Shown one piece after another: positions 373 through 16,170 of a stretch of 44,262 nucleotides of DNA (within the stretch, counting starts at the first letter, position 1; each line of letters begins with the position of its first letter). Position numbers and translations under genes: made by a program. The notes under the pieces are model-generated. The model saw nothing but the letters and a program-made list of their open reading frames with translations. It did no database searches and was not told where the DNA came from. The DNA comes from Syntrophomonadaceae bacterium (GTDB lineage Bacteria > Bacillota > Syntrophomonadia > Syntrophomonadales > Syntrophomonadaceae), in contig JAQWBP010000002.1 in the NCBI GenBank assembly GCA_028706315.1, positions 1 through 44,262 on the forward strand, read 5' to 3'.

Positions 373-549
373 AATACTCTGTCATGATTAACCTGAGAGA
401 TTCACTAGCTAGCAACTAACTAGTTTGCTCCTTCGGTGCTTTTGGCTTTCCAGAGTTCGCATCGAAACGCGGTCCTTTTGACCTGAAAGCTTCACTAGTA
501 TTCGGCAATATACTAGTTTTCTTCTTCGGTATGGATTATTCCATTCTCC
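373..549 (-). ncRNA. Tandem glycine riboswitch (two aptamers)
   Basis: Read on the minus strand, two glycine-aptamer cores follow one another. Aptamer 1 (about 549 to 458) has GGGAGAATGG, ACCGAAGAAG, a variable ACTAGT-capped arm and CAGGTCAAAAGGACCG. Aptamer 2 (about 457 to 373) opens with AACTCTGG, has GCACCGAAGGAGCAAAC, a variable arm, CTCTCAGGTTAATCATG and closes with ACAGAGT. ACTCTG and CAGAGT pair as its P1. This is the classic gcvT-type tandem layout. It should sense glycine and control the leftward gene starting at 85. No clear intrinsic terminator is visible between aptamer 2 and that gene, so the expression platform is uncertain. Confidence 0.9.
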
Positions 550-575
550 CACGTTCTTCATCTGCTTTTATTTTG

Positions 576-1222: not shown

Positions 1223-1555
1223 CTACTTGCAACATGAGCTGGTAATATCACACATCCGCCGATATTCTTCTTTAAACTCAGGAATTTCGTTAAGAGGTAT
1301 CTGCATGAACTGTCCAAACTTCGCCATAACATCATAATAATACCCTTGGTTAAACTTACACATACGCTTTTGCCCTTCTCGCCGCTCACTGACTAAGCCC
1401 GCCTGTTTTAATATCTTTAAATGCTGCGAAATACGGGGTTGGCTGACCTGCAGAATCTCTTCGAGTTCGCAAACACAAAGCTCCTGTTCAGCAAGCATTC
1501 TTACAATTCTTAGACGTGTAGGTTCACCCAAGGCTTTAAAAAAAGTTTCAAACAT
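1223..1555 (-). CDS. ArsR/SmtB-family metal- or redox-responsive repressor
   Basis: A 110-residue winged-helix protein. After the start it reads FFKALGEPTRLRIVRML, the typical ArsR opening. The recognition helix region is VSQPRISQHLKILKQAGLV, followed by a wing with RREGQKRM. The CVC motif in ELCVCELE sits where ArsR-type sensors carry their cysteine pair, and the C-terminus ends in TSSCCK, adding more thiols. Thiol-based sensing of a soft metal, arsenite or reactive sulfur is likely; the ligand cannot be named. I chose the ATG at 1555 because GGGGGTG lies just upstream; a GTG at 1564 overlaps that site and is less likely. A palindrome covers its own promoter, suggesting autorepression. No metal-efflux gene follows, so its targets may lie elsewhere. 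Confidence 0.9.
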   Translation of the reverse strand: MFETFFKALGEPTRLRIVRMLAEQELCVCELEEILQVSQPRISQHLKILKQAGLVSERREGQKRMCKFNQGYYYDVMAKFGQFMQIPLNEIPEFKEEYRRMCDITSSCCK

Positions 1556-1576
1556 TATAATCACCCCCGTAATATA

Positions 1577-1622: not shown

Positions 1623-1687
1623 CCCGGTTACCTGTATAGCAAAAAATAAAACAAAGGCGCACCTTTGGTACGCCTTATACTCAAGTT

Positions 1688-1975
1688 CTAATTTTTTAAA
1701 TATAACTGTGGCCCCCACAGCCTCTTTTTATATCCTATTTTTACCGGAAGGCCTTCGGCATTTTCAAATAGTTGGGTCATATATACGATAAAACCTTCTA
1801 TTTCCTTCCTTATATACTCTTTTAGTTTATCCTCAGAAGGACTTCCCAGTCGCACGGACTGTTGCAATCTCGGTCCAGATCACCCACAGGATTCATAATT
1901 ATAGTCTATAGTAAATATTCCACCATTGGCATTAATATATTCCCTGGCTTCTTCTTCTATCGCTGCTACTTTCAT
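1688..1975 (-). CDS. HesB/IscA-like CC/Se-motif selenoprotein (UGA-encoded Sec32)
   Basis: Read through one in-frame TGA (1880-1882), this frame gives 95 residues ending at TAG 1688. It begins MKVAAIEEEAREYINANGG, followed by IFTIDYNYESCG, then Sec32, then SGPRLQQSVRLGSPSEDKLK. The C-terminal half is a continuous frame ending KKRLWGPQLYLKN. The layout (helix, short beta strand, Cys-Gly-Sec-Ser-Gly-Pro turn) matches small HesB/IscA-like proteins in which a key cysteine is replaced by selenocysteine. Supporting signs are the Shine-Dalgarno AAGGAAGGTGA before the ATG, a consensus promoter, and a hairpin of SECIS type right after the UGA. Each half on its own is too short to be a normal gene. The role is unknown; thiol/selenol redox chemistry or metal/sulfur handling is plausible. 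The host must have SelA-D, not visible here. Confidence 0.85.
1839..1882 (-). promoter_or_regulatory. Bacterial SECIS element and UGA(Sec) codon
   Basis: The UGA is followed, 18 bases later, by the stem CAGTC/GACTG with loop CGTGC, which carries a GU in the apical loop as SelB-recognised hairpins do. An outer stem GGAC (1873-1876) / GTCC (1839-1842) encloses it. Distance and loop fit the bacterial SECIS pattern. Confidence 0.75.
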
Positions 1976-1997
1976 TTGCTCACCTTCCTTATTTGCT

Positions 1998-2049
1998 ATA
2001 TACCCCATGGGGGTATATTTAATATACAATCAACCTGCCACAATGTCAA
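1998..2049 (-). promoter_or_regulatory. Selenoprotein promoter with CsoR/CstR-type operator
   Basis: On the minus strand TTGACA (2044-2049) and TATATT (2021-2026) are exactly 17 bases apart. Immediately downstream, over the expected +1, is a perfect palindrome (1998-2018) with arms ATATACCCC and GGGGTATAT around ATG. C-tract/G-tract palindromes of this kind are recognised by CsoR-family repressors (copper-sensing CsoR, persulfide-sensing CstR). The repressor itself is not in the window. Confidence 0.7.
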
Positions 2050-2143: not shown

Positions 2144-3439
2144 CTACCAAATCATTTTGCGGTTAGATTCACTCTTTAGATAATCCCTGAAATTGGGATG
2201 AGCGATATTTACTAATTCCCGCACTCTTTCCTTTATAGAACGTCCTCTTAATGAGGCTACACCGTATTCTGTTATAATATAGTCAACATCGACGCGCGAA
2301 GTCGTAACTACTGTGCCACTCTCCAACCAGGGAACAATTTTAGATACGGTATCATCCCTGGCCGTAGAATAAAATGCAATTATTGACTTCCCCCCGGGTG
2401 ATTTCTGGGCTCCAATAATAAACTCTTTATGTCCTCCCGTTCCACTAAATAATCTGGGCCCAATAGATTCAGCACAACATTGACCAGTTAAATCAACTTC
2501 CAGGGCAGAGTTAATCGAAACCATTTTATAGTTTCGCGCTATAATTGCTGGATCATTAACCTTACTGCCACGGTGGAATTCCACCGCCATGTTCTCATCT
2601 AAAAAATCATATAACCGCTTGGTTCCGAGTGCCACGTCAGCAATAAATTTATTCTTGAAAATAGTTTTCCTGCTGTTATTTATAGCCCCTGTTTCATAAA
2701 GATCTAGTACGGAATCGGTAAACATCTCTGAATGTAGTCCCAGGTCTTTTTTATCCCTGAGACTATAGGCTATGGCCCCGGGTATGTTTCCAAAGCCCAA
2801 CTGTACAGTCGAACCATCTTCAATTAAGTCAGCAGCATACTCCCCTATTCTCATATCTTTTTCATTTATTGCCGGTGGATTCGAAGTAAGAATTTCTCGA
2901 TTAGTTTCTACTATGTAATCTACCTGCGATATATGAACATGAGTGTCACCATAAGTACGGGGAAGATTAGGGTTAACTTCTAAAATAACGATATCGGCAG
3001 CTTCGATGAAATCCTTTTCCATAACTGTACAGAGAGATAAAGACATATAACCGTGTTTATCCATCGGAGAGGCGCAACCGAGAAAAACATTGGGCTGGCG
3101 GTAATCCATGCGCCTGCTGCTAAACTGGTGCAGTTGCATAGGTACATAAGATACAGTCCCTAGAGGATGAGCTTTCCTAGGGCCTTTACTATAGAACCAG
3201 CTATTAAGCATAAAATGCCCTTTCATTTCCGGATTTAAGAAGAACTCATATTCACCATTCATCATGGCACTAACTACCGACACATTCTCCACTCGGTCTT
3301 TAATCTTATGCAATTTACTCAGTAGAGTCACTGGTTCACAGCCAACCAGGGCGCAAACCACTTCATCATTGCTCTTAATATGCTCAAGAGCCCCTGCGAT
3401 AGATACTACTTTGTTAGAATACATTTGCTCATATTTCAT
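2144..3439 (-). CDS. Acetyl-CoA hydrolase/transferase family CoA-transferase (4-hydroxybutyrate or butyryl-CoA:acetate type)
   Basis: A family I CoA-transferase of about 431 residues. The N-terminal half carries GCASPMDKHGYMSLS, and the C-terminal half has GFGNIPGAIA and HSEMFTD, whose glutamate is the expected covalent CoA-ester residue. Further on are GTGGHKEFIIGAQKSPGG and ITEYGVASLRGRS, all typical of the 4-hydroxybutyrate/butyryl-CoA:acetate group. It would exchange CoA between acetate and a short acyl-CoA in the cytoplasm, a reaction useful in butyrate or crotonate metabolism. I prefer the ATG at 3439, five bases after GGGGTG, over the GTG at 3445 that overlaps it. It is a single-gene unit with its own leader. 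The exact substrate cannot be read from sequence. Confidence 0.9.
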   Translation of the reverse strand: MKYEQMYSNKVVSIAGALEHIKSNDEVVCALVGCEPVTLLSKLHKIKDRVENVSVVSAMMNGEYEFFLNPEMKGHFMLNSWFYSKGPRKAHPLGTVSYVPMQLHQFSSRRMDYRQPNVFLGCASPMDKHGYMSLSLCTVMEKDFIEAADIVILEVNPNLPRTYGDTHVHISQVDYIVETNREILTSNPPAINEKDMRIGEYAADLIEDGSTVQLGFGNIPGAIAYSLRDKKDLGLHSEMFTDSVLDLYETGAINNSRKTIFKNKFIADVALGTKRLYDFLDENMAVEFHRGSKVNDPAIIARNYKMVSINSALEVDLTGQCCAESIGPRLFSGTGGHKEFIIGAQKSPGGKSIIAFYSTARDDTVSKIVPWLESGTVVTTSRVDVDYIITEYGVASLRGRSIKERVRELVNIAHPNFRDYLKSESNRKMIW

Positions 3440-3763
3440 TTTCACACCCCAGAACTTTATAAATTTCGTTAATACTCTTTATTATGTAATAATTATGACA
3501 TAATACCATTATTTTTAGCAATCCCCCAAAATTATACTTAACCTCTGTGTTATTTTATTACGAAGAGTTCTTTTATAATGCCTATAGATGACGCATTGGA
3601 ACTATAACTGCGCATAAAACAAATTAATAAAATCATTATGAATAATATAAGGAATCTATCATATACTATATAGATGCACTTTATTAAAAACCGCGGTATA
3701 ATTAAACTGGTGCTTGCACTACAAATTAACTGGGTGTTTTAATCAAGAAAATTAATTTGTTTC
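3440..3763. other. Intergenic region with a palindrome upstream of the CoA-transferase
   Basis: About 320 bases without a gene. On the minus strand a possible promoter is TTGCTA followed 18 bases later by CATAAT. The inverted repeat ATTATGT (3481-3487) / ACATAAT (3498-3504) overlaps this region and could be an operator for the CoA-transferase. The rest is AT-rich with no further signal seen. Confidence 0.35.
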
Positions 3764-8609: not shown

Positions 8610-9692
8610 CTATAGAACCTGTACAGCTTTTTCGATCGCGATTACCAGAGCATAGCAGAAGTCTTCAGATCTACACCCGGGAACTTCGATGTTATGATCA
8701 TTAAAGAATTTTGTTACTGTGGCATAAATATCTGTTTCCCGACTGGAATGGTTTTTAAGCACTGCCTCTAAATCGAGTATGCTCCTTTCCGGGTAGGCGA
8801 AGAAATCACCAGTAATAAAGACTGCTTTTATCCTTTGGCGCGTTTTATCCAAACGCAACGCTACTCGGATTAACCCCCCGGAACTTTTGTAATCAGCCTC
8901 AACTAAATCACTAGCCTGATACTGACTACGCCTACCGTAAATCCATTCATCAGATTGAAAATACGGCAGCTCTTGATTTAAAAGGTTCTTTTCCCACTCC
9001 GAGAGGCCAGCAGGTTCCAGATTAATACCAAAAACTTCAGCAAAACCTTCTGCCATAGCATCTTTTATTTTATTGATAGGCGGGACATAACCTAAAACTT
9101 CTTTCAAACAAGTAACCCGCTCTTTAAAGGACTTAATCTGATGATTTTCCAGCTTTTTCAAGGGGAGTTTAAGACAGGCTATCATAGTATCGACGTCAAA
9201 ATCAGTAAGAATTGTCCCATGGTACAGAAGAGCATTTCCTTTGCCTGTTCCTCCTGTACCTGATATTTTGCGACCCTCAACTTCTATATCATTAGCAGGA
9301 CGGTAACTGGCTTTTACACCTAGCCTTTTTAGCCCGGCCATAGCGCTTTCACACATCAAACGATAGAAATCCTCAAGTCTAGCCGGAATACCTGGAGCAT
9401 CTTTGATCGTAAATATTTCCCATCCCAGCTGGCCTTCATCCATATAAAGGTTCCCCCCGCCGCTAATGCGCCGGTTTATTTCAATACCATGTGCCCGGCA
9501 GTATTCTGTTTCAACTTCTAATTCGACTGCCTGATGATAACCTACCAGGGCAGAATGAGGGGAAAATTGCAGAAAATGAAGTGTATCCGGGATTATATCC
9601 CGGCTGCGGGCTTCGAGAATTACTTTTTCCAGCGTCATGTTCTCAGCTGCAGACAGAGCTCCCGTATCGAGTAGTCGCCATGTTTTTTTCAT
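8610..9692 (-). CDS. lplA: Lipoate-protein ligase A-like enzyme, full length with C-terminal domain
   Basis: A 360-residue member of the BPL/LplA/LipB fold. The binding motif RRISGGGNLYMDEGQLGWEI (about 77-96) and the lysine-bearing motif NDIEVEGRKISGTGG are intact, so it should activate octanoate or lipoate with ATP and load it onto a carrier lysine. Residues after about 260 form the extra C-terminal domain seen in LplA and in the sLpl(AB) ligases that work with LipS1/LipS2. Its ATG overlaps the stop of the GcvH-like gene by four bases (ATGA), which ties the ligase to that carrier. Substrate preference (octanoate versus free lipoate) cannot be read from sequence. Confidence 0.88.
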   Translation of the reverse strand: MKKTWRLLDTGALSAAENMTLEKVILEARSRDIIPDTLHFLQFSPHSALVGYHQAVELEVETEYCRAHGIEINRRISGGGNLYMDEGQLGWEIFTIKDAPGIPARLEDFYRLMCESAMAGLKRLGVKASYRPANDIEVEGRKISGTGGTGKGNALLYHGTILTDFDVDTMIACLKLPLKKLENHQIKSFKERVTCLKEVLGYVPPINKIKDAMAEGFAEVFGINLEPAGLSEWEKNLLNQELPYFQSDEWIYGRRSQYQASDLVEADYKSSGGLIRVALRLDKTRQRIKAVFITGDFFAYPERSILDLEAVLKNHSSRETDIYATVTKFFNDHNIEVPGCRSEDFCYALVIAIEKAVQVL

Positions 9693-10120
9693 ATCAGCAT
9701 CTCATCTTCTTGTTCTTTTGCGACCTGTTCTTGCACCCATTTAGCATAGGCTTTAGCATCCATTAATTCATTTAATTCGTTTTTTTCGTTTATTTGCAGC
9801 CGTAAAATCCACCCTTTACCGTAAGGGTCACTATTCAGTAGTCCCGGTTCTTTAATTACTGCTCCATTCTTTTCTAGAATGGTGCCACTGATGGGGACTA
9901 TAATCCTGCCCACCCATTTTCCTGCTTCTACCGAGCCGGCATCTTCTAATTTTTTTATATAATTTCCCTTATCAATAGTATCCACATATAGTACATCACC
10001 TATGGTGCTTTGACCATAGGCGCTTATGCCAATAATAGCCTCATCATTATTAACTTTAATCCAGTAGTTATTCGTATCGTAGAAGAAGTCTTCCGGTATG
10101 TTGTATCCTTCAACTTGCAT
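9689..10120 (-). CDS. GcvH-like lipoyl carrier protein with GKWVG context
   Basis: 143 residues with the H-protein fold: an N-terminal Y/W strand (NYWIKVNNDEAIIGIS), a central hairpin and a C-terminal helix. Aligned on the downstream proline-glycine (VPISG), the expected lipoyl lysine is Lys68 in SVEAGKWVGRI, where ordinary H proteins read ESVKAAS. The C-terminus has SDPYGKGWILRL, close to the usual NxxPxGxGW. The Shine-Dalgarno AGGAGGG is ideal. It lies between two LplA-like genes. Together with the second copy at 13818 it looks like a specialised carrier rather than the glycine cleavage H protein; LbpA of sulfur oxidisers is the best-known case of such a repurposed H protein. Confidence 0.85.
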   Translation of the reverse strand: MQVEGYNIPEDFFYDTNNYWIKVNNDEAIIGISAYGQSTIGDVLYVDTIDKGNYIKKLEDAGSVEAGKWVGRIIVPISGTILEKNGAVIKEPGLLNSDPYGKGWILRLQINEKNELNELMDAKAYAKWVQEQVAKEQEDEMLI

Positions 10121-10162
10121 CGCTTACCCTCCTGTCATGACACCAGGGGCTATTCCCCCATA

Positions 10163-11071
10163 TTACGTTTGGGACATTATTTGTTGCAACTGATAAAGAC
10201 TTTTGTCTGTAAAACTAAATGTTGCCATTACTTCCCCATTGTCGTTTAATGCAAAAGTAGATCTTTCCTCCATCTGAGCATCTTCCTCCAGGTACACCCC
10301 TTCGGCTATCTTTATCCTGCGTTGCTGCTGTTTACGCCCGGGGAGGCTCAACCATTTAGAGCCTGTCAGCTTCGTGTAGAGCTTTGCTGCCACCTCAATT
10401 ACTTCTAAATCTAGTTCTGCCGGATAAAGTTCACCTAGAGTTTGAGAGAAACCTTCTACTAGCATACCTGCTATCTCCTGGTAGCCAGGTATATAATCTA
10501 ACCAGTCTTTGATGGTAGTCATATATAATTGCATCGACCAGTTTAAAAAGGGTTGTACTTCAGGACATGGTATTCGTAAAACCCGGCTCATTCTTTCATA
10601 ATCGAAATCAAGCAAGATATTTCCCACATAAGCTACTGATTCCCCTATATCTCCTGCGGCATTTCCCGAACACTTGCGCCCCTTTACGGTAATATCAGCT
10701 GGTGCATGTAATTGTGCCGGTATACCAAGCTTACGGTAGGTTAAAATGGCCGGCTTTAAAAAGTAGGGATAGAATCGTCCTCTTTGTAAAGGTAGTAAAG
10801 GATTATCCCTTCTTAGTACCATTTGATAAAAAACCTGGTTACTATCAAGATATACTACTCCACCACCAGTTTCCCGGCGCAGCAAAGGAATATTTTTTTT
10901 CTGGCAGTAATCTACGGCAATCTCACTTTTCAGGTCATCATGCAGGCCCAGGCAAACATAGGCCGAGGTAGGAGAACATATTATTAAGCCTTCACGGCCC
11001 AGATAAGACAGGGCATGATAATAGCATTGTGACTCCCACCAGCTAACCCGACCCAGATTGTATAATTTCAC
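10163..11071 (-). CDS. LplA/LipM-like lipoate or octanoate transferase
   Basis: 302 residues of the BPL/LplA fold. The motifs RRETGGGVVYLDSNQVFY and PADITVKGRKCSGNAAGD carry the expected Gly-rich loop and active lysine. The sequence is quite different from the 360-residue ligase nearby, so this is not a recent duplicate. The start is GTG 11071 with AGGAGGG seven bases upstream. It could be a ligase, or an octanoyl/lipoyl transferase moving the group between the two H-like carriers and E2. It follows the GlcF-like gene after about 100 bases that contain a dispersed repeat. Confidence 0.82.
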   Translation of the reverse strand: MKLYNLGRVSWWESQCYYHALSYLGREGLIICSPTSAYVCLGLHDDLKSEIAVDYCQKKNIPLLRRETGGGVVYLDSNQVFYQMVLRRDNPLLPLQRGRFYPYFLKPAILTYRKLGIPAQLHAPADITVKGRKCSGNAAGDIGESVAYVGNILLDFDYERMSRVLRIPCPEVQPFLNWSMQLYMTTIKDWLDYIPGYQEIAGMLVEGFSQTLGELYPAELDLEVIEVAAKLYTKLTGSKWLSLPGRKQQQRRIKIAEGVYLEEDAQMEERSTFALNDNGEVMATFSFTDKSLYQLQQIMSQT

Positions 11072-11114
11072 TCCTTTGCCCTCCTGTACTTAAAATTATC
11101 TTTAAAAGAGAAAA

Positions 11115-11154
11115 AATCAGCGAAAATCATATTAAATCCGCGTTAATCTGCGTC
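11115..11154 (-). repeat. Dispersed intergenic repeat, single copy inside the lipoate operon
   Basis: On the minus strand GACGCAGATTAACGCGGATT is followed by a spacer and TCGCTGATTTTTT. The core GACGCAGATTAACGC is also found in both copies of the tandem repeat at the right edge. It lies between two operon genes and has no coding content. Confidence 0.65.
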
Positions 11155-11175
11155 TAAAATGGGGGGCTAGAAATT

Positions 11176-12342
11176 CTACAACAATACTTCCTGAAGCAAT
11201 TGGCTGATATCCATCACCCGGACTTTTAATCCTGCCTCTCTAATGCCTGCTGATAACATCTGTTCACATTGCTGGCAGGCTGATACTACTATAGTTGCAC
11301 CTGTTTCCTTAATTTCGTCTACTCTTAAAGCCGATATATGTCCCGCCAGGGCAGGATCTACACTCTGAAGGTTACCCCCTCCGCCACAACAAAGAGAATT
11401 ACTCCGATTATGCTGCATCTCCACCAGCTCTACTCCTGGAATGCTCGTTATTACTTCCCGGGGGGCGGCAAATATTCCGCCATTACGTCCCAGGTCACAG
11501 GGATCATGATAAGTTACTACTTCATCAAGTTCGTCAAATTGGATTTTACCGGTTTTTATTAAACGGGCCAGGTATTCTGTAGTATGTAGAATTTCCAGGT
11601 TATAACCCTTTAACTCTTCGGCACAGGCATGTTTCCAGAAATGATAGCAGGTGGCACAGCTGGCAATCAGAGTATGAATATTTAGCTCCTTAATTTTGGC
11701 TACATTATGTTTTATAAATGGCTCCGCATCTTTAACAAAACCTGCACTTACCAGAGGGTAGCCACAGCACCATTCTTCCCCACCCATAGTAGTAAAGTTA
11801 ATCCCGGCCTGCATTAAAATCTCGCAGATCGCCAGTGGTACCTGGGCTGCTTGCGGGTAAAAAGATGATACACAACCGACAAAATAGCAAACATCTGCCT
11901 CTTCCTCAAGCTCCAGACCTTCTGGTTCTTCATCAAGGTCCTCAGCCCATTCCAGGCGGTCACTATTGCTAAAAGTGGAAATGTTTTTATTAGTAATAAG
12001 GTTATTTTTTAGGTTAACGTAGGCTTCCGGGGCTAACCCCTCGTCCGCCACACGCTTGCGCAGTTCCAACCAAAGACTGCGAGTATCTATACAAGTTGAA
12101 CATACATTGGCACAAGCTCCACAAAGAGTACACTGATCAAGACGCTTAACAAAATCTTCCCCGAGTTTGTTCCTTTTACCATGAGCGAAGATTTCCCGGG
12201 CCAGGCTAATTTTACCCCTGGGGGTACTTGATTCCCAGCCGATTACCTCATATACCGGGCAAACACTGCGACAGTAACCACATCGCCCACAGATTAGGGT
12301 TTCTTGCTCTAGGGTAGTAAATAAATCTTTAGTAGCAGTCAT
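11176..12342 (-). CDS. Two-[4Fe-4S], two-CCG-domain oxidoreductase subunit (GlcF/HdrD/LutA-like)
   Basis: 388 residues. N-terminal ferredoxin-like motifs CGRCGYCRSVCP (Cys18, 21, 24, 28) and CTLCGACANVCSTC would bind two [4Fe-4S] clusters. Two cysteine-rich CCG domains follow: CYFVGC...EWCCGYPL...SCATC, and HDPCDLGR...SLCCGGGG...ACQQC. The same build is found in glycolate oxidase GlcF and in HdrD, where CCG domains hold special clusters that act on disulfides. It overlaps the FAD subunit gene by four bases, so they surely form one complex. The setting among lipoyl carrier genes suggests a dihydrolipoyl/disulfide substrate or partner rather than glycolate. That is inference; lactate or glycolate oxidation remains an alternative. 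Confidence 0.88.
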   Translation of the reverse strand: MTATKDLFTTLEQETLICGRCGYCRSVCPVYEVIGWESSTPRGKISLAREIFAHGKRNKLGEDFVKRLDQCTLCGACANVCSTCIDTRSLWLELRKRVADEGLAPEAYVNLKNNLITNKNISTFSNSDRLEWAEDLDEEPEGLELEEEADVCYFVGCVSSFYPQAAQVPLAICEILMQAGINFTTMGGEEWCCGYPLVSAGFVKDAEPFIKHNVAKIKELNIHTLIASCATCYHFWKHACAEELKGYNLEILHTTEYLARLIKTGKIQFDELDEVVTYHDPCDLGRNGGIFAAPREVITSIPGVELVEMQHNRSNSLCCGGGGNLQSVDPALAGHISALRVDEIKETGATIVVSACQQCEQMLSAGIREAGLKVRVMDISQLLQEVLL

Positions 12343-13793
12343 CTTTTCTCCCCCTTTCCGCAGATTCGTCTGGTAGCTGCCATTACATTACATCCCAGCG
12401 AAAAAGTGAGAGGGTGAAATAGGAACGGCCATTTATATACCTTGCCCGGATTAATTATGTTCTTCTGGTCAACCGTCTTTTTCCTTGTACGTATTTGCGC
12501 CAGATTAGCAGGAGTAAAAATTCTTTTCAGGTAAGGTGTATTCCATAATCCTATACCATATGGATACCCACCGTACTTGTAACCTGCATCTTGTATTTTC
12601 TTGACCAAGCTCAGTCCAATAACATAACTTACTTTTTTGGTTTCATCAGCATAAAACATAGTCATTACCGTTAGATGTCCCCGATCAACTACATGTCCAT
12701 AAGAGGTCAACCCCAGCCGGTAGATGCTGCTTACTTTGTCTATCTCCTTAAGGTATAACCCCAGTTTCTCGATAGGAAGACAGATTTCAGCACCTAGTTG
12801 TGATGGGCCGCCACGTTTTAATTTCAAAGCCTTAAAACGTTCTTCCCATTCCTTTAAGGCTATATTTTTGTTCAGCATTTTAACACTTTTATTGCCGGCA
12901 ACAACTGCTGCTACAATTTCAGCCGCCTCTTTAAGTTCGCTTTCCTCACCTTCGTAATCAACCGCTATAATATTGGCATCCTCAATCTGTCCGGCAGTAA
13001 ATCCCAATTTTCTCATAGCCTGGTTATAATACTTATCACTAAAATGTAAATTATACGGTTTTACTGCTGCATCTTTTAAGGTAGTAATGATACTGGCTAT
13101 ACTTTTAGTTTCATGAACCTGGAGCAAATAATGACACATAGGCGTGAAAGACCGAACTTCCAATTCAAGTTCTGTAATAATTCCCAGGGTACCTTCAGCA
13201 CAGGCAAACCAGTCCAGGGATGGGCTGGTTTCACTGGTAATAATTTTTATTTCTCCAGCGGGGAAAACTACTTTAATCGACCGTAACTGGGAAAGGAGAT
13301 TTCCGTATTTCAAGCTGCCTACCCCATATCCCATCATAGAAAACCATCCGCCGATAGTAGCCACTGGTGCACTGGAGGGATAAGATTTAGCCGCCAGCCC
13401 CTGCCGGTTTAAATATTCTTCCAGTTCACTCCAGGTAGTGGCTGCTCGAACTGTAACAGTCATTTCATCCTTATTCAATGCTTTAATTCCCTTGATTAGA
13501 TTCAGGTCCATAAGGATTCCACCCCTGGTAGGAATAGAATTGAAATATACGGTGGAACCGCCGGCCCGGGGTGTCACTGGTATCCGGTTTTCATCGGCAA
13601 TTTTTAGTATTTGAGCTACTTCGGCCGTATTTTGCGGACGCACTACCATATCAGGCCTGGTTTTAAATAGAGGGTCAACCAGAAAGTCGGGTACGGGAGC
13701 CAGGTCACGTGTATAGAAACTGCACTCAAACGCAGAATCTGTTGCCCGCTCATCGAATTCCTTTTTTATCTGCTCTTGTACTTCAGTCTTCAT
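12339..13793 (-). CDS. FAD-linked oxidase (GlcD-like, PCMH/VAO fold)
   Basis: 484 residues. The FAD-binding PCMH domain (about 45-220) includes VRPQNTAEVAQILKIADENR, VTPRAGGSTVYFN and the loop YPSSAPVATIGGWFSMMGYG. A substrate cap follows, and near the C-terminus is DQKNIINPGKVYKWP, the usual end of GlcD/DLD-type enzymes. A final tail carries two cysteines, SLGCNVMAATRRICGKG, not usual for GlcD. The start has GGGAGGG six bases upstream. It lies 24 bases after a GcvH-like gene and overlaps the Fe-S/CCG subunit gene. The pair would oxidise a two-electron donor and pass electrons to the Fe-S subunit. The physiological donor may be glycolate, lactate or a lipoyl-linked compound. Confidence 0.88.
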   Translation of the reverse strand: MKTEVQEQIKKEFDERATDSAFECSFYTRDLAPVPDFLVDPLFKTRPDMVVRPQNTAEVAQILKIADENRIPVTPRAGGSTVYFNSIPTRGGILMDLNLIKGIKALNKDEMTVTVRAATTWSELEEYLNRQGLAAKSYPSSAPVATIGGWFSMMGYGVGSLKYGNLLSQLRSIKVVFPAGEIKIITSETSPSLDWFACAEGTLGIITELELEVRSFTPMCHYLLQVHETKSIASIITTLKDAAVKPYNLHFSDKYYNQAMRKLGFTAGQIEDANIIAVDYEGEESELKEAAEIVAAVVAGNKSVKMLNKNIALKEWEERFKALKLKRGGPSQLGAEICLPIEKLGLYLKEIDKVSSIYRLGLTSYGHVVDRGHLTVMTMFYADETKKVSYVIGLSLVKKIQDAGYKYGGYPYGIGLWNTPYLKRIFTPANLAQIRTRKKTVDQKNIINPGKVYKWPFLFHPLTFSLGCNVMAATRRICGKGEKR

Positions 13794-13817
13794 TCTTCAC
13801 CCTCCCGGTAGTAATAT

Positions 13818-14240
13818 TTAACCAGCATGTTCAGCTATTTCTTTTTTAAGCCACTCACTAACTTCTTCGCCATGCATTAAACTGCTTAGCCCTTCATTAA
13901 GGTTGACCGGTTCCATTACCGCAATCCAGCCATTTCCATAAGGATCATTATTAAGTGGACTAGGATCATTAACTAAATCGCGGTTAGCTTCTATCACTTT
14001 GCCGGCCAGAGGGACTTGTATTTTACCCGCCCATTTGCCTGATTGTAATGAGGTAAGTGTCTTGCCCGCAGAGAGGTCTTTATTGACGCGAGGAATCCTG
14101 ATAAAAGTTATTTCTCCCGCCAGTTGCTGCATAAAATCAGTAATACCTATCCTGATTTTGTCTCCTTCCACCTTTAACCAGGCATGGTCAGTTGTATAAT
14201 ATAACTCATCTGGCACTTCATATTTATCAACTTTGCCCAT
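13818..14240 (-). CDS. GcvH-like lipoyl carrier protein with GKWAG context (second copy)
   Basis: 140 residues with the H-protein pattern: VPDELYYTTDHAWLKVEGDK, IRIGITDFMQQLAGEITFI and NDPYGNGWIAVM. The lysine aligned to the lipoyl site is Lys69 in LQSGKWAGKI, preceding VPLAG. It shares the GKWxGxI context with the copy at 9689 but differs widely elsewhere, so the two are old paralogues. The next gene, lipA, starts inside its last codons. It lies directly before the FAD oxidase gene, which points to that enzyme as partner. True glycine cleavage H protein cannot be excluded, but no T or P gene is in this operon. Confidence 0.87.
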   Translation of the reverse strand: MGKVDKYEVPDELYYTTDHAWLKVEGDKIRIGITDFMQQLAGEITFIRIPRVNKDLSAGKTLTSLQSGKWAGKIQVPLAGKVIEANRDLVNDPSPLNNDPYGNGWIAVMEPVNLNEGLSSLMHGEEVSEWLKKEIAEHAG

Positions 14241-15123
14241 AAACTACACTCCCTTTCTGTTTCTGCTTGCGCAATCTAACTTCGGCAAACATCTGCACAG
14301 CATTGTATGAACTGCGTACTAGGGGACCAGAGCTAACTGCCAAAAACCCCATTTTTAGCGCAAATTCCTTTAGTTCTTTAAATTCATCAGGGTGTATATA
14401 ACTTACTACTGGCAAGTGTTCAGAGGAAGGTCTTAGATATTGCCCCAGGGTAAGGATTTCACACCCTGCATCAAGCAGATCATTCATTACCCGAATAATT
14501 TCTGCTCGGGTTTCGCCTAATCCCAGCATCATACCAGATTTTGTGCATATACCATTACCAGCCTGACTAACCCGTTTTAGCAGCTTAAGCGAACGGGAGT
14601 ATACTGCCTGGGGTCTGGCCTGGTGATAGAGACGAGGGACCGTCTCCACATTATGATTTATAACATCAGGCCGGGCATTAATAATTTCCATCAGGGATTC
14701 AGTGCTGCCCCTAAGGTCAGATATCAAAACTTCCACGGTAGTTTGCGGTAATTGATTTCTGAGGTTTTTTATTACAGCTACAAACTGTCCTGCCCCACCA
14801 TCAGGTAAGTCATCCCTGGTAACCGTAGTAATAACTACATGTTTCAAACCCAGCTTTTTAGCAGTAAGAGCAATCTGCAAGGGTTCGTTAGTATCAACTA
14901 CTGCCGGACGGCCATGGCGAACCGCACAAAATCTGCAATTGCGGGTACAAATATCACCCAGGATCATGAAGGTACAAGTTTTGCTGGCAAAACACTCGCC
15001 AATATTCGGACATTCAGCACCTTCACATACTGTATGAAGATGACCCTGATCCAGCATTTTTTTCATTCTGTCTAATTCTGCAGTAGACGGTGCTGGTATT
15101 GTCAACCATTCAGGTTTCTGCAT
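14227..15123 (-). CDS. lipA: Lipoyl synthase
   Basis: 298 residues with all LipA marks: the auxiliary cluster motif C-x4-C-x5-C (Cys33, 38, 44 in CEGAECPNIGEC), the radical SAM motif CTRNCRFC (Cys59, 63, 66), TTVTRDDLPDGGA, and the RSSY ligand near the C-terminus (VRSSYNA). It inserts both sulfur atoms into octanoyl groups on carrier lysines. It overlaps lipB upstream and the gcvH-like gene downstream. The start ATG at 15123 has GAGGAG eight bases upstream. Confidence 0.97.
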   Translation of the reverse strand: MQKPEWLTIPAPSTAELDRMKKMLDQGHLHTVCEGAECPNIGECFASKTCTFMILGDICTRNCRFCAVRHGRPAVVDTNEPLQIALTAKKLGLKHVVITTVTRDDLPDGGAGQFVAVIKNLRNQLPQTTVEVLISDLRGSTESLMEIINARPDVINHNVETVPRLYHQARPQAVYSRSLKLLKRVSQAGNGICTKSGMMLGLGETRAEIIRVMNDLLDAGCEILTLGQYLRPSSEHLPVVSYIHPDEFKELKEFALKMGFLAVSSGPLVRSSYNAVQMFAEVRLRKQKQKGSVVYGQS

Positions 15124-15839
15124 TTAACCATCTCCTCTATGGCTCCCAGGTTGATGTCTTCCAGTTTGATCGCGAATACTTGCTCAAACTCTGCCTGCAT
15201 CTCCCGGCGAACCTGGTTAATGTCCACCTGGCAGCCTAGTAGTTTTTCCATACTAGTCACACCGAAATCCGAAATTCCACAGGGGACGATTAATGAAAAG
15301 TGTTTTAGCAAAGGACATACATTTAGAGCTATGCCGTGCATAGTAACCCACCGGCTAACAGTTATACCTTCCGCAGCAATTTTTTCCTTTCCTACCCAGA
15401 CACCGGGGTATCCTTCCCGGCGTCCGGCATCTATGCTAAACTTTTTCAGGGTACGGATAACAACTTCTTCAATGTTCCTGGCATAACGATGTACATCGCG
15501 ACCGTAGCCTTTTAAGTCGATTATGGGGTAACAGACTAACTGGCCAGGACCATGATAAGTAATATCCCCCCCACGATCAGTTTCATAGATGCTAATTCCT
15601 TCATCCCTGAGCACTTCGTTACCAGCCAGGATATGATTAAAACCGCCATGCCTGCCGATGGTAAAACAGGGGTAATGTTCCAAAAAAATTACCGTATCAG
15701 TTATCAGCATTTGCTGGCGCAACAGGCTTATGTGCTGTTGCAGCTCATAAGCCTGGTTGTATTCCCTAATACCCGATTGCAAGCAGTAACCACTTTTTAT
15801 AACCTCGTCCCCGATTACAGTCCGGAAGTTATTCTTCAT
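15102..15839 (-). CDS. lipB: Octanoyl-[ACP]:protein octanoyltransferase
   Basis: 245 residues. RGGDITYHGPGQLVCYPI forms the LipB signature, the catalytic lysine is in GKEKIAAEGI, and the catalytic cysteine is in VPCGISDFGVTSM. It moves octanoate from ACP to the lipoyl domain, and LipA then adds sulfur. Its start overlaps the end of the AhpD-like gene by 11 bases and its end overlaps lipA by 22, so translation is probably coupled. Confidence 0.96.
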   Translation of the reverse strand: MKNNFRTVIGDEVIKSGYCLQSGIREYNQAYELQQHISLLRQQMLITDTVIFLEHYPCFTIGRHGGFNHILAGNEVLRDEGISIYETDRGGDITYHGPGQLVCYPIIDLKGYGRDVHRYARNIEEVVIRTLKKFSIDAGRREGYPGVWVGKEKIAAEGITVSRWVTMHGIALNVCPLLKHFSLIVPCGISDFGVTSMEKLLGCQVDINQVRREMQAEFEQVFAIKLEDINLGAIEEMVKCRNLNG

Positions 15840-16170
15840 ATGCTTCCAGGGCTTTTAGTACAGTACTGCATAAATTGGCATACGCTGGAGAACCACCAAA
15901 TGCTACTCCCACAGCAGCCGCCTCCAGTATTTCTTCCCGGTTAGCACCATACATTAGACCCTGTTTAACATGGATAGTCATACAATAATGACACCCCACT
16001 GCTACCGCAATTCCTAAACCGATGAGTTCTTTATATTTCCTATCTAATTCTCCGTCTATGTAGGCGGCATTATCCATCTGTACAAATGCCTGGGTTATTT
16101 CTGGTAGCTCTTCTTCGATTTCCGGCATCCCTAAACCAAGCTCTTCCATGAGTTCAACTGGATTGGCCAT
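15829..16170 (-). CDS. Carboxymuconolactone decarboxylase/AhpD-like CxxC protein
   Basis: 113 residues, all-helical, with the AhpD motif ELIGLGIAVAVGCHYCMTIH holding the CxxC pair and following histidine. AhpD proteins are thiol peroxidase-type enzymes; in Mycobacterium AhpD is recycled by the lipoyl domain of an E2. Lying between E2 and lipB, this one is well placed to exchange electrons with dihydrolipoyl groups, for peroxide defence or as a thiol relay. The decarboxylase activity in the family name is unlikely. AAGGAGG precedes the ATG. Confidence 0.88.
   Translation of the reverse strand: MANPVELMEELGLGMPEIEEELPEITQAFVQMDNAAYIDGELDRKYKELIGLGIAVAVGCHYCMTIHVKQGLMYGANREEILEAAAVGVAFGGSPAYANLCSTVLKALEAYEE

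What the first reader, a model, noticed from the sequence alone, without database searches (positions are those of the whole stretch)
1688..1975. Unannotated selenoprotein with in-frame UGA
A 95-codon frame is broken by one TGA in the motif Cys-Gly-TGA-Ser-Gly-Pro. It has a good ribosome site, protein-like sequence on both sides, and a SECIS-like hairpin with GU in its loop at the right distance. Gene callers split or miss it. It appears to belong to HesB/IscA-like small proteins with a CC/Se motif.
Basis: partly seen in the sequence, partly recalled or inferred. Interest (0 to 1): 0.85.

Follow-up and report, generated by a model that had tools for sequence, protein, structure and literature searches.

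The report
Small selenoprotein with IscA-like fold
An anaerobic Syntrophomonadaceae-type bacterium has a small gene in which a UGA 'stop' almost certainly encodes selenocysteine; the protein belongs at the edge of a known selenoprotein family of unknown function, and its control site suggests a role in handling reactive sulfur or a soft metal.

Summary
It is a selenoprotein gene. Homologues keep UGA at exactly this codon, or have Cys there. Close pairs show coding constraint on both sides of it. The genome has selA, selB, a tRNA-Sec and a SelD that itself carries an in-frame UGA. The protein matches NCBIfam NF041239 ('CC/Se motif (seleno)protein'), 39.5 bits against a cut-off of 40. 'HesB/IscA-like' fails by sequence models but holds by predicted fold (IscA, Z 8.8). 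The hairpin fits the bacterial SECIS model, but alone it is no better than chance (p≈0.4); it gains weight from homologues.

New here: a 21-bp palindrome lies right behind the promoter. The same motif occurs at only one other palindromic place in the genome, the promoter of its only CsoR-family repressor gene, which is followed by a thioredoxin gene. The motif precedes this selenoprotein in 8 genomes and HesB-like selenoproteins in 7. So the protein is probably a redox or soft-ligand protein induced through a CsoR-type repressor, sulfane sulfur being a likelier signal than copper. A new member of a known kind, with a new regulatory lead.

The parts
1688..1975 (-). Selenoprotein gene, 95 residues (Sec at residue 32) plus TAA
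   Evidence: NF041239 E=4.4e-10; homologues
1880..1882 (-). In-frame UGA read as selenocysteine, in C30-G31-U32-S33-G34-P35
   Evidence: UGA or Cys in the same alignment column in homologues
1847..1861 (-). SECIS-like hairpin CAGUC-CGUGC-GACUG: 5-bp stem, 5-nt loop with G at position 2 followed by U, loop 23 nt after the UGA
   Evidence: model from PMC13188914; alone not beyond chance
1980..1989 (-). Ribosome-binding site (AAGGAAGGTGA-like) ahead of the ATG
   Evidence: sequence
1998..2018 (-). 21-bp palindrome ATATACCCC-CAT-GGGGTATAT, likely operator of a CsoR-family repressor
   Evidence: same core before csoR and before homologous selenoprotein genes
2021..2049 (-). Sigma-70-type promoter TTGACA-17-TATATT, directly ahead of the operator
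   Evidence: 11 of 12 matches
1652..1676 (-). Intrinsic-terminator-like hairpin with T-run between the selenoprotein gene and the arsR gene

Best explanation
A monocistronic selenoprotein gene. UGA 1882-1880 is decoded as selenocysteine by SelB and tRNA-Sec, helped by the hairpin just downstream (UGA decoding: very likely; this hairpin being the signal: inferred). The product is a divergent member of the CC/Se motif family. It has an IscA/HesB-type fold (predicted), lacks IscA's C-terminal Cys-Gly-Cys, and offers a Cys-x-Sec pair where IscA has its first conserved cysteine. Transcription starts at a strong promoter whose start region carries an operator for the genome's only CsoR-family repressor, encoded elsewhere with thioredoxin (inferred from shared operators). 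When that repressor's cysteines meet its signal, most likely per/polysulfide sulfur and less likely Cu(I), the gene is induced, and the Cys/Sec pair binds or reduces the reactive species, with thioredoxin possibly recycling it (inferred). Rough confidence: selenoprotein 0.96; IscA-type fold 0.85; CsoR-type control 0.8; sulfane sulfur as the signal 0.5.
For: Frame, start, RBS. NF041239 match; homologues with UGA or Cys at the same codon and coding constraint downstream. Sec machinery, including a Sec-type selD. Hairpin fits the bSECIS model; 13 UGA homologues keep NCC-GTG at U+8/U+9, and one stem pair shows G-C/A-U exchange across 8 homologues, one changes on both sides in the closer three. Fold: AlphaFold2 with 4 sequences, pLDDT 88.9; every listed match with Z of 5 or more is an IscA/SufA/HesB-type protein, best IscA Z 8.8, then Z 2.4. 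Operator: exactly two palindromic ATACCC-N5-GGGTA places in the genome, here and at csoR; the core is within 65 nt of the start in 8 of 16 NF041239 genes of the order, at csoR itself in 7 of 10 genomes, 8 with one mismatch allowed, and before HesB-like selenoproteins in 7, a PF04143 sulfur transporter, a TDT/SLAC1 exporter and Tat Fe-S proteins. Among Sec-encoding members, 7 of 8 genomes with the operator have CsoR against 1 of 6 without. All ten csoR genes are followed by thioredoxin. The genome's copper ATPase gene lacks the operator.
Against: NF041239 score is 0.5 bit below its cut-off. This hairpin alone is matched by 40% of synonymous shuffles. The sensor keeps the Cys, His-x3-Cys set of the copper sensor CsoR, so copper is not excluded. 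The repressor-operator link is by shared sequence only. The CsoR/operator correlation leans on related genomes (four of the five CsoR-less genomes without the operator share a genus). No expression or biochemical data.
Confidence: 0.8

Rival explanations
1. The same selenoprotein, but CsoR senses Cu(I) and the protein is a copper-binding or copper-protecting selenoprotein.
For: The repressor aligns with solved Cu-CsoR proteins and keeps the Cys and His-x3-Cys positions, in all ten genomes. A Cys-x-Sec pair is a plausible soft-metal site.
Against: The only copper ATPase over cut-off sits behind iscS-iscU-like genes without the operator. csoR is always paired with thioredoxin. Other operator targets in relatives are sulfur-type transporters. 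CsoR of Streptomyces coelicolor is reported to respond to sulfane sulfur (PMC9918477).
Confidence: 0.3
2. The UGA is a real stop, and what follows is a decaying or unused pseudogene tail.
For: UGA is a stop in ordinary code; the lone hairpin is not statistically special.
Against: UGA (or Cys) at the same codon in many genomes, third-position bias downstream, confident predicted fold needing both halves, full Sec machinery.
Confidence: 0.02
3. UGA is read as Trp or by general readthrough rather than as Sec.
For: None found.
Against: Homologues have Cys, not Trp, at the position (L024, L028, L034, L042). The genome has a complete Sec system with Sec-type selD, and ordinary genes end at TGA.
Confidence: 0.01
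4. The protein is a genuine A-type Fe-S carrier (IscA/HesB) in which Sec replaces a cluster ligand.
For: Predicted fold.
Against: The chain ends just before where IscA has Cys-Gly-Cys; no IscA/HesB sequence-model match.
Confidence: 0.1

Closest known systems
NF041239, CC/Se motif family (seleno)protein (first predicted in Moorella thermoacetica; listed in PMC13188914)
   Same: Length, N-terminal helix, Cys/Sec-rich turn, V-x-x-G-x-P and G-x-x-V-Y motifs, UGA position, hairpin at the same distance
   Different: Scores 39.5 bits against a cut-off of 40; belongs to a divergent clade with C-(S/G)-U instead of GGGU-C; carries a CsoR-type operator that the more distant UGA members lack
HesB-like selenoprotein (TIGR01911 / NF038090)
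   Same: Sec in a G-U-x-G turn, probably the same fold (predicted here for our protein), and in relatives the same operator
   Different: No sequence-model match; weak profile-profile match (E 0.011, probability 3.8%); no C-terminal Cys-rich tail
IscA/SufA A-type Fe-S carriers
   Same: Predicted fold (IscA Z 8.8)
   Different: 11% identity over the structural alignment; lacks the C-terminal Cys-Gly-Cys cluster ligands
CsoR/CstR regulons (copper or persulfide)
   Same: Pseudo-palindromic operator with C and G runs next to the promoter; operator at the repressor's own gene; sulfur-type transporters among the targets in relatives
   Different: Selenoproteins and a thioredoxin are the targets; effector untested

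Membership tests
NF041239 CC/Se motif (seleno)protein | Score at or above the curated cut-off (40 bits) | tested here: inconclusive
   39.5 bits, E 4.4e-10; its 38%-identical relative L029 scores 41.1, over the cut-off
NF041239 CC/Se motif (seleno)protein | Cys/Sec or Cys/Cys motif in the conserved turn | tested here: met
   C30-G-U32, aligned with U or C of homologues
Bacterial selenoprotein gene | In-frame UGA aligned with UGA or Cys in homologues, coding on both sides | tested here: met
Bacterial selenoprotein gene | Genome encodes SelA, SelB, SelD and tRNA-Sec | tested here: met
Bacterial selenoprotein gene | SECIS: loop of 3-9 nt with G in its first two positions, 16-37 nt from UGA, energy -7.5 or lower | tested here: inconclusive
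   Geometry met; -8.2 kcal/mol in one folding window, -5.8 in a shorter one; 20% of synonymous shuffles also pass
Bacterial selenoprotein gene | Selenium incorporation shown | not testable with these tools
   needs 75Se labelling or mass spectrometry
HesB-like selenoprotein (TIGR01911 / NF038090) | Match to the family model | tested here: not met
   no match up to E 10
IscA/SufA A-type carrier | A-type carrier fold | tested here: met
   predicted model only: IscA Z 8.8, rmsd 3.1, 84 aligned
IscA/SufA A-type carrier | C-terminal Cys-Gly-Cys ligands | tested here: not met
   chain ends ...WGPQLYLKN
CsoR-type regulon | Operator shared with the csoR promoter | tested here: met
   only two palindromic ATACCC-N5-GGGTA places in the genome: here and at csoR
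CsoR-type regulon | Repressor binds the operator and releases it on effector | not testable with these tools
   needs gel-shift or footprint

The most novel reading that the evidence does not exclude
In this bacterial family a CsoR-type repressor, made together with thioredoxin, controls a set of small IscA-fold selenoproteins (CC/Se and HesB-like) plus sulfur-type transporters: an inducible selenoprotein defence against reactive sulfur or a soft metal, which would give two orphan selenoprotein families a shared function.
Probability: 0.5. Interest if true: 0.65.

Novelty: new member of a known kind. Interest (0 to 1): 0.48.

Why it matters
The CC/Se motif family is a selenoprotein family without known function. 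A fold assignment plus an operator shared with csoR-thioredoxin and, in relatives, with HesB-like selenoproteins gives a concrete hypothesis that can be tested with ordinary gel-shift, induction and redox assays. It also shows a real selenoprotein that the curated family model misses by half a bit.

Tried and rejected
Plus-strand reading of the interval: full of stops. Single-sequence scan of genome contigs: nothing; a three-sequence alignment found 3 named relatives. PDB by sequence: nothing. Pfam: nothing. The single-sequence AlphaFold model was poor (pLDDT 65.9) and was not used. Free folding of the 54 nt after the UGA favours another structure, so the local hairpin is not the minimum-energy fold of the naked RNA. 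Synonymous-shuffle test: no signal for this gene alone (p 0.40); over 23 homologues chi-square 88.9 on 46 d.f., but the sequences are related and the p-values coarse. HesB membership by sequence: rejected. In one search the first lines start one base late (GAT instead of TGA); the L039 row is the correct one. An earlier count gave the UGA as 1881-1879; the right place is 1882-1880. In some searches a few loci (L035, and L036) were read on the wrong strand and are not used; L036 is read correctly.

Full report
OBSERVATION. The frame lies on the minus strand, window 1975→1688. With UGA read as Sec it encodes 95 residues and ends at TAA; the UGA is codon 32, at 1882-1880, in Cys-Gly-Sec-Ser-Gly-Pro. 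A ribosome-binding site precedes the ATG. An 11-of-12 sigma-70 promoter lies at 2049-2021 and a terminator-like hairpin at 1676-1652, so the gene looks monocistronic. An ArsR-type gene (1223-1564, minus) follows as a separate unit.

IT IS A SELENOPROTEIN GENE. NCBIfam NF041239, 'CC/Se motif family (seleno)protein', matches at E 4.4e-10, 39.5 bits with a cut-off of 40. A 2026 review lists this family as a selenoprotein family first predicted in Moorella thermoacetica (PMC13188914). In 101 related genomes 27 have a match, most with exactly one in-frame TGA; in the alignment the TGA falls in one column, and members without it (L024, L028, L034, L042) have Cys there. One member (L045) has neither. 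Between close pairs the differences concentrate in third codon positions on both sides of the UGA. The genome has selA, selB, tRNA-Sec (anticodon TCA) and a selD with UGA in the active-site motif GUAAKIGPG. Closest named relatives are a Thermosyntropha MAG and Syntrophomonadaceae MAGs.

THE SECIS. The hairpin CAGUC-CGUGC-GACUG starts its loop 23 nt after the UGA, with G at loop position 2 followed by U, as in the published bacterial model. Taken alone it is not convincing: 40% of synonymous shuffles reach its energy. In eight more distant homologues the corresponding hairpin CCURC-CGUGnnn-GYAGG sits at the same distance, one stem pair exchanging G-C, G-U and A-U; in the three closer sequences one pair changes on both sides. 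Thirteen UGA members keep NCC-GTG at U+8/U+9 although the first amino acid varies between Ala, Thr and Ser. I regard the hairpin as the likely SECIS, not as proven.

FOLD. Sequence models of HesB/IscA do not match; a profile-profile comparison with HesB-like selenoproteins aligns Sec with Sec but is weak (E 0.011, probability 3.8%). With four sequences (this one and three close relatives) AlphaFold2 gives pLDDT 88.9; the ten best structural matches are all IscA/SufA/HesB-type proteins (IscA Z 8.8, 84 residues, rmsd 3.1), followed by a drop to Z 2.4. The chain stops before the point where IscA has Cys-Gly-Cys, so it should not hold an Fe-S cluster in the IscA manner. This is a prediction, not a solved structure.

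CONTROL. Directly behind the -10 box lies the 21-bp palindrome ATATACCCC-CAT-GGGGTATAT (1998-2018). CsoR-family repressors bind pseudo-palindromes with runs of G and C (PMC10318464). ATACCC-N5-GGGTA occurs at two palindromic places in the whole genome: here and in the promoter of its only PF02583 (CsoR-family) gene, in the same position behind the -10 box. The csoR gene is followed by thioredoxin in this genome and in all nine relatives found to have it, and its own promoter carries the motif in seven of the ten, one more with a single mismatch. The motif (TACCC-N5-GGGTA) stands ahead of the NF041239 gene in 8 of 16 genomes of the order. Among Sec-encoding members 7 of 8 genomes with the operator have CsoR, against 1 of 6 without it (one-sided Fisher p about 0.016 worked out by hand, not corrected for relatedness). 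The same motif precedes HesB-like selenoproteins in seven of these genomes (not in this genome, which has no PF01521 match), a PF04143 sulfur transporter pair, a TDT/SLAC1 exporter next to the selenium-metabolism gene yedF, and Tat-signal Fe-S proteins. I found no paper in the held library that links CsoR with bacterial selenoproteins; absence from that library is weak evidence.

EFFECTOR. The repressor keeps Cys and His-x3-Cys as in Cu(I) CsoR. Against copper: the copper ATPase gene lacks the operator and sits behind iscS-iscU-like genes, csoR is always paired with thioredoxin, and other targets look sulfur-related. CsoR of Streptomyces is reported to respond to sulfane sulfur (PMC9918477). 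I put sulfane sulfur at 0.5, copper at 0.3, the rest elsewhere.

VERDICT. As a selenoprotein it is a new member of a known kind. The lead worth following is the CsoR-type operator, shared in relatives with HesB-like selenoproteins.

Noticed in passing
window 1223-1564 (-), upstream palindrome about 1573-1603: ArsR-type regulator with an ELCVCEL motif (the Cys pair typical of arsenite-sensing ArsR, from memory), with its own near-perfect palindrome AACTTATACTTATATAAGGATAAGTT upstream; no ars genes seen next to it.
   Followed up: no
window 376-561 (-): Tandem glycine riboswitch (two aptamers) ahead of a gene cut off by the contig start, possibly glycine-cleavage gcvPA.
   Followed up: no
window 8610-16170 (-): Cluster of lipoate-ligase-like proteins, two GcvH-like proteins, lipA, lipB, a GlcD/GlcF-like pair and a CMD protein (my reading of the translations): resembles a dedicated lipoate-binding-protein system rather than plain glycine cleavage.
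   Followed up: no
L094, L095, L104, L105, L107, L110, L111: HesB-like selenoproteins with in-frame UGA (G-U-G-G); those complete at the C-terminus end in a Cys-rich tail. All lie behind the same CsoR-type operator; the models NF038090/TIGR01911 match the three tested ones below their cut-offs.
   Followed up: partly
G000:C44:3147-3161 (L049 about 1500-1516): Another palindrome, GAATGTACCCCGGAGGGGTACATTC, at the convergent end of a metal ABC transporter permease gene and a thioredoxin-like gene; looks more like a terminator or a different regulator's site.
   Followed up: no
window 2144-3445 (-): CoA-transferase next to the selenoprotein gene; the same neighbour order (CoA-transferase end, then selenoprotein) is kept in L037 and L041.
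   Followed up: partly
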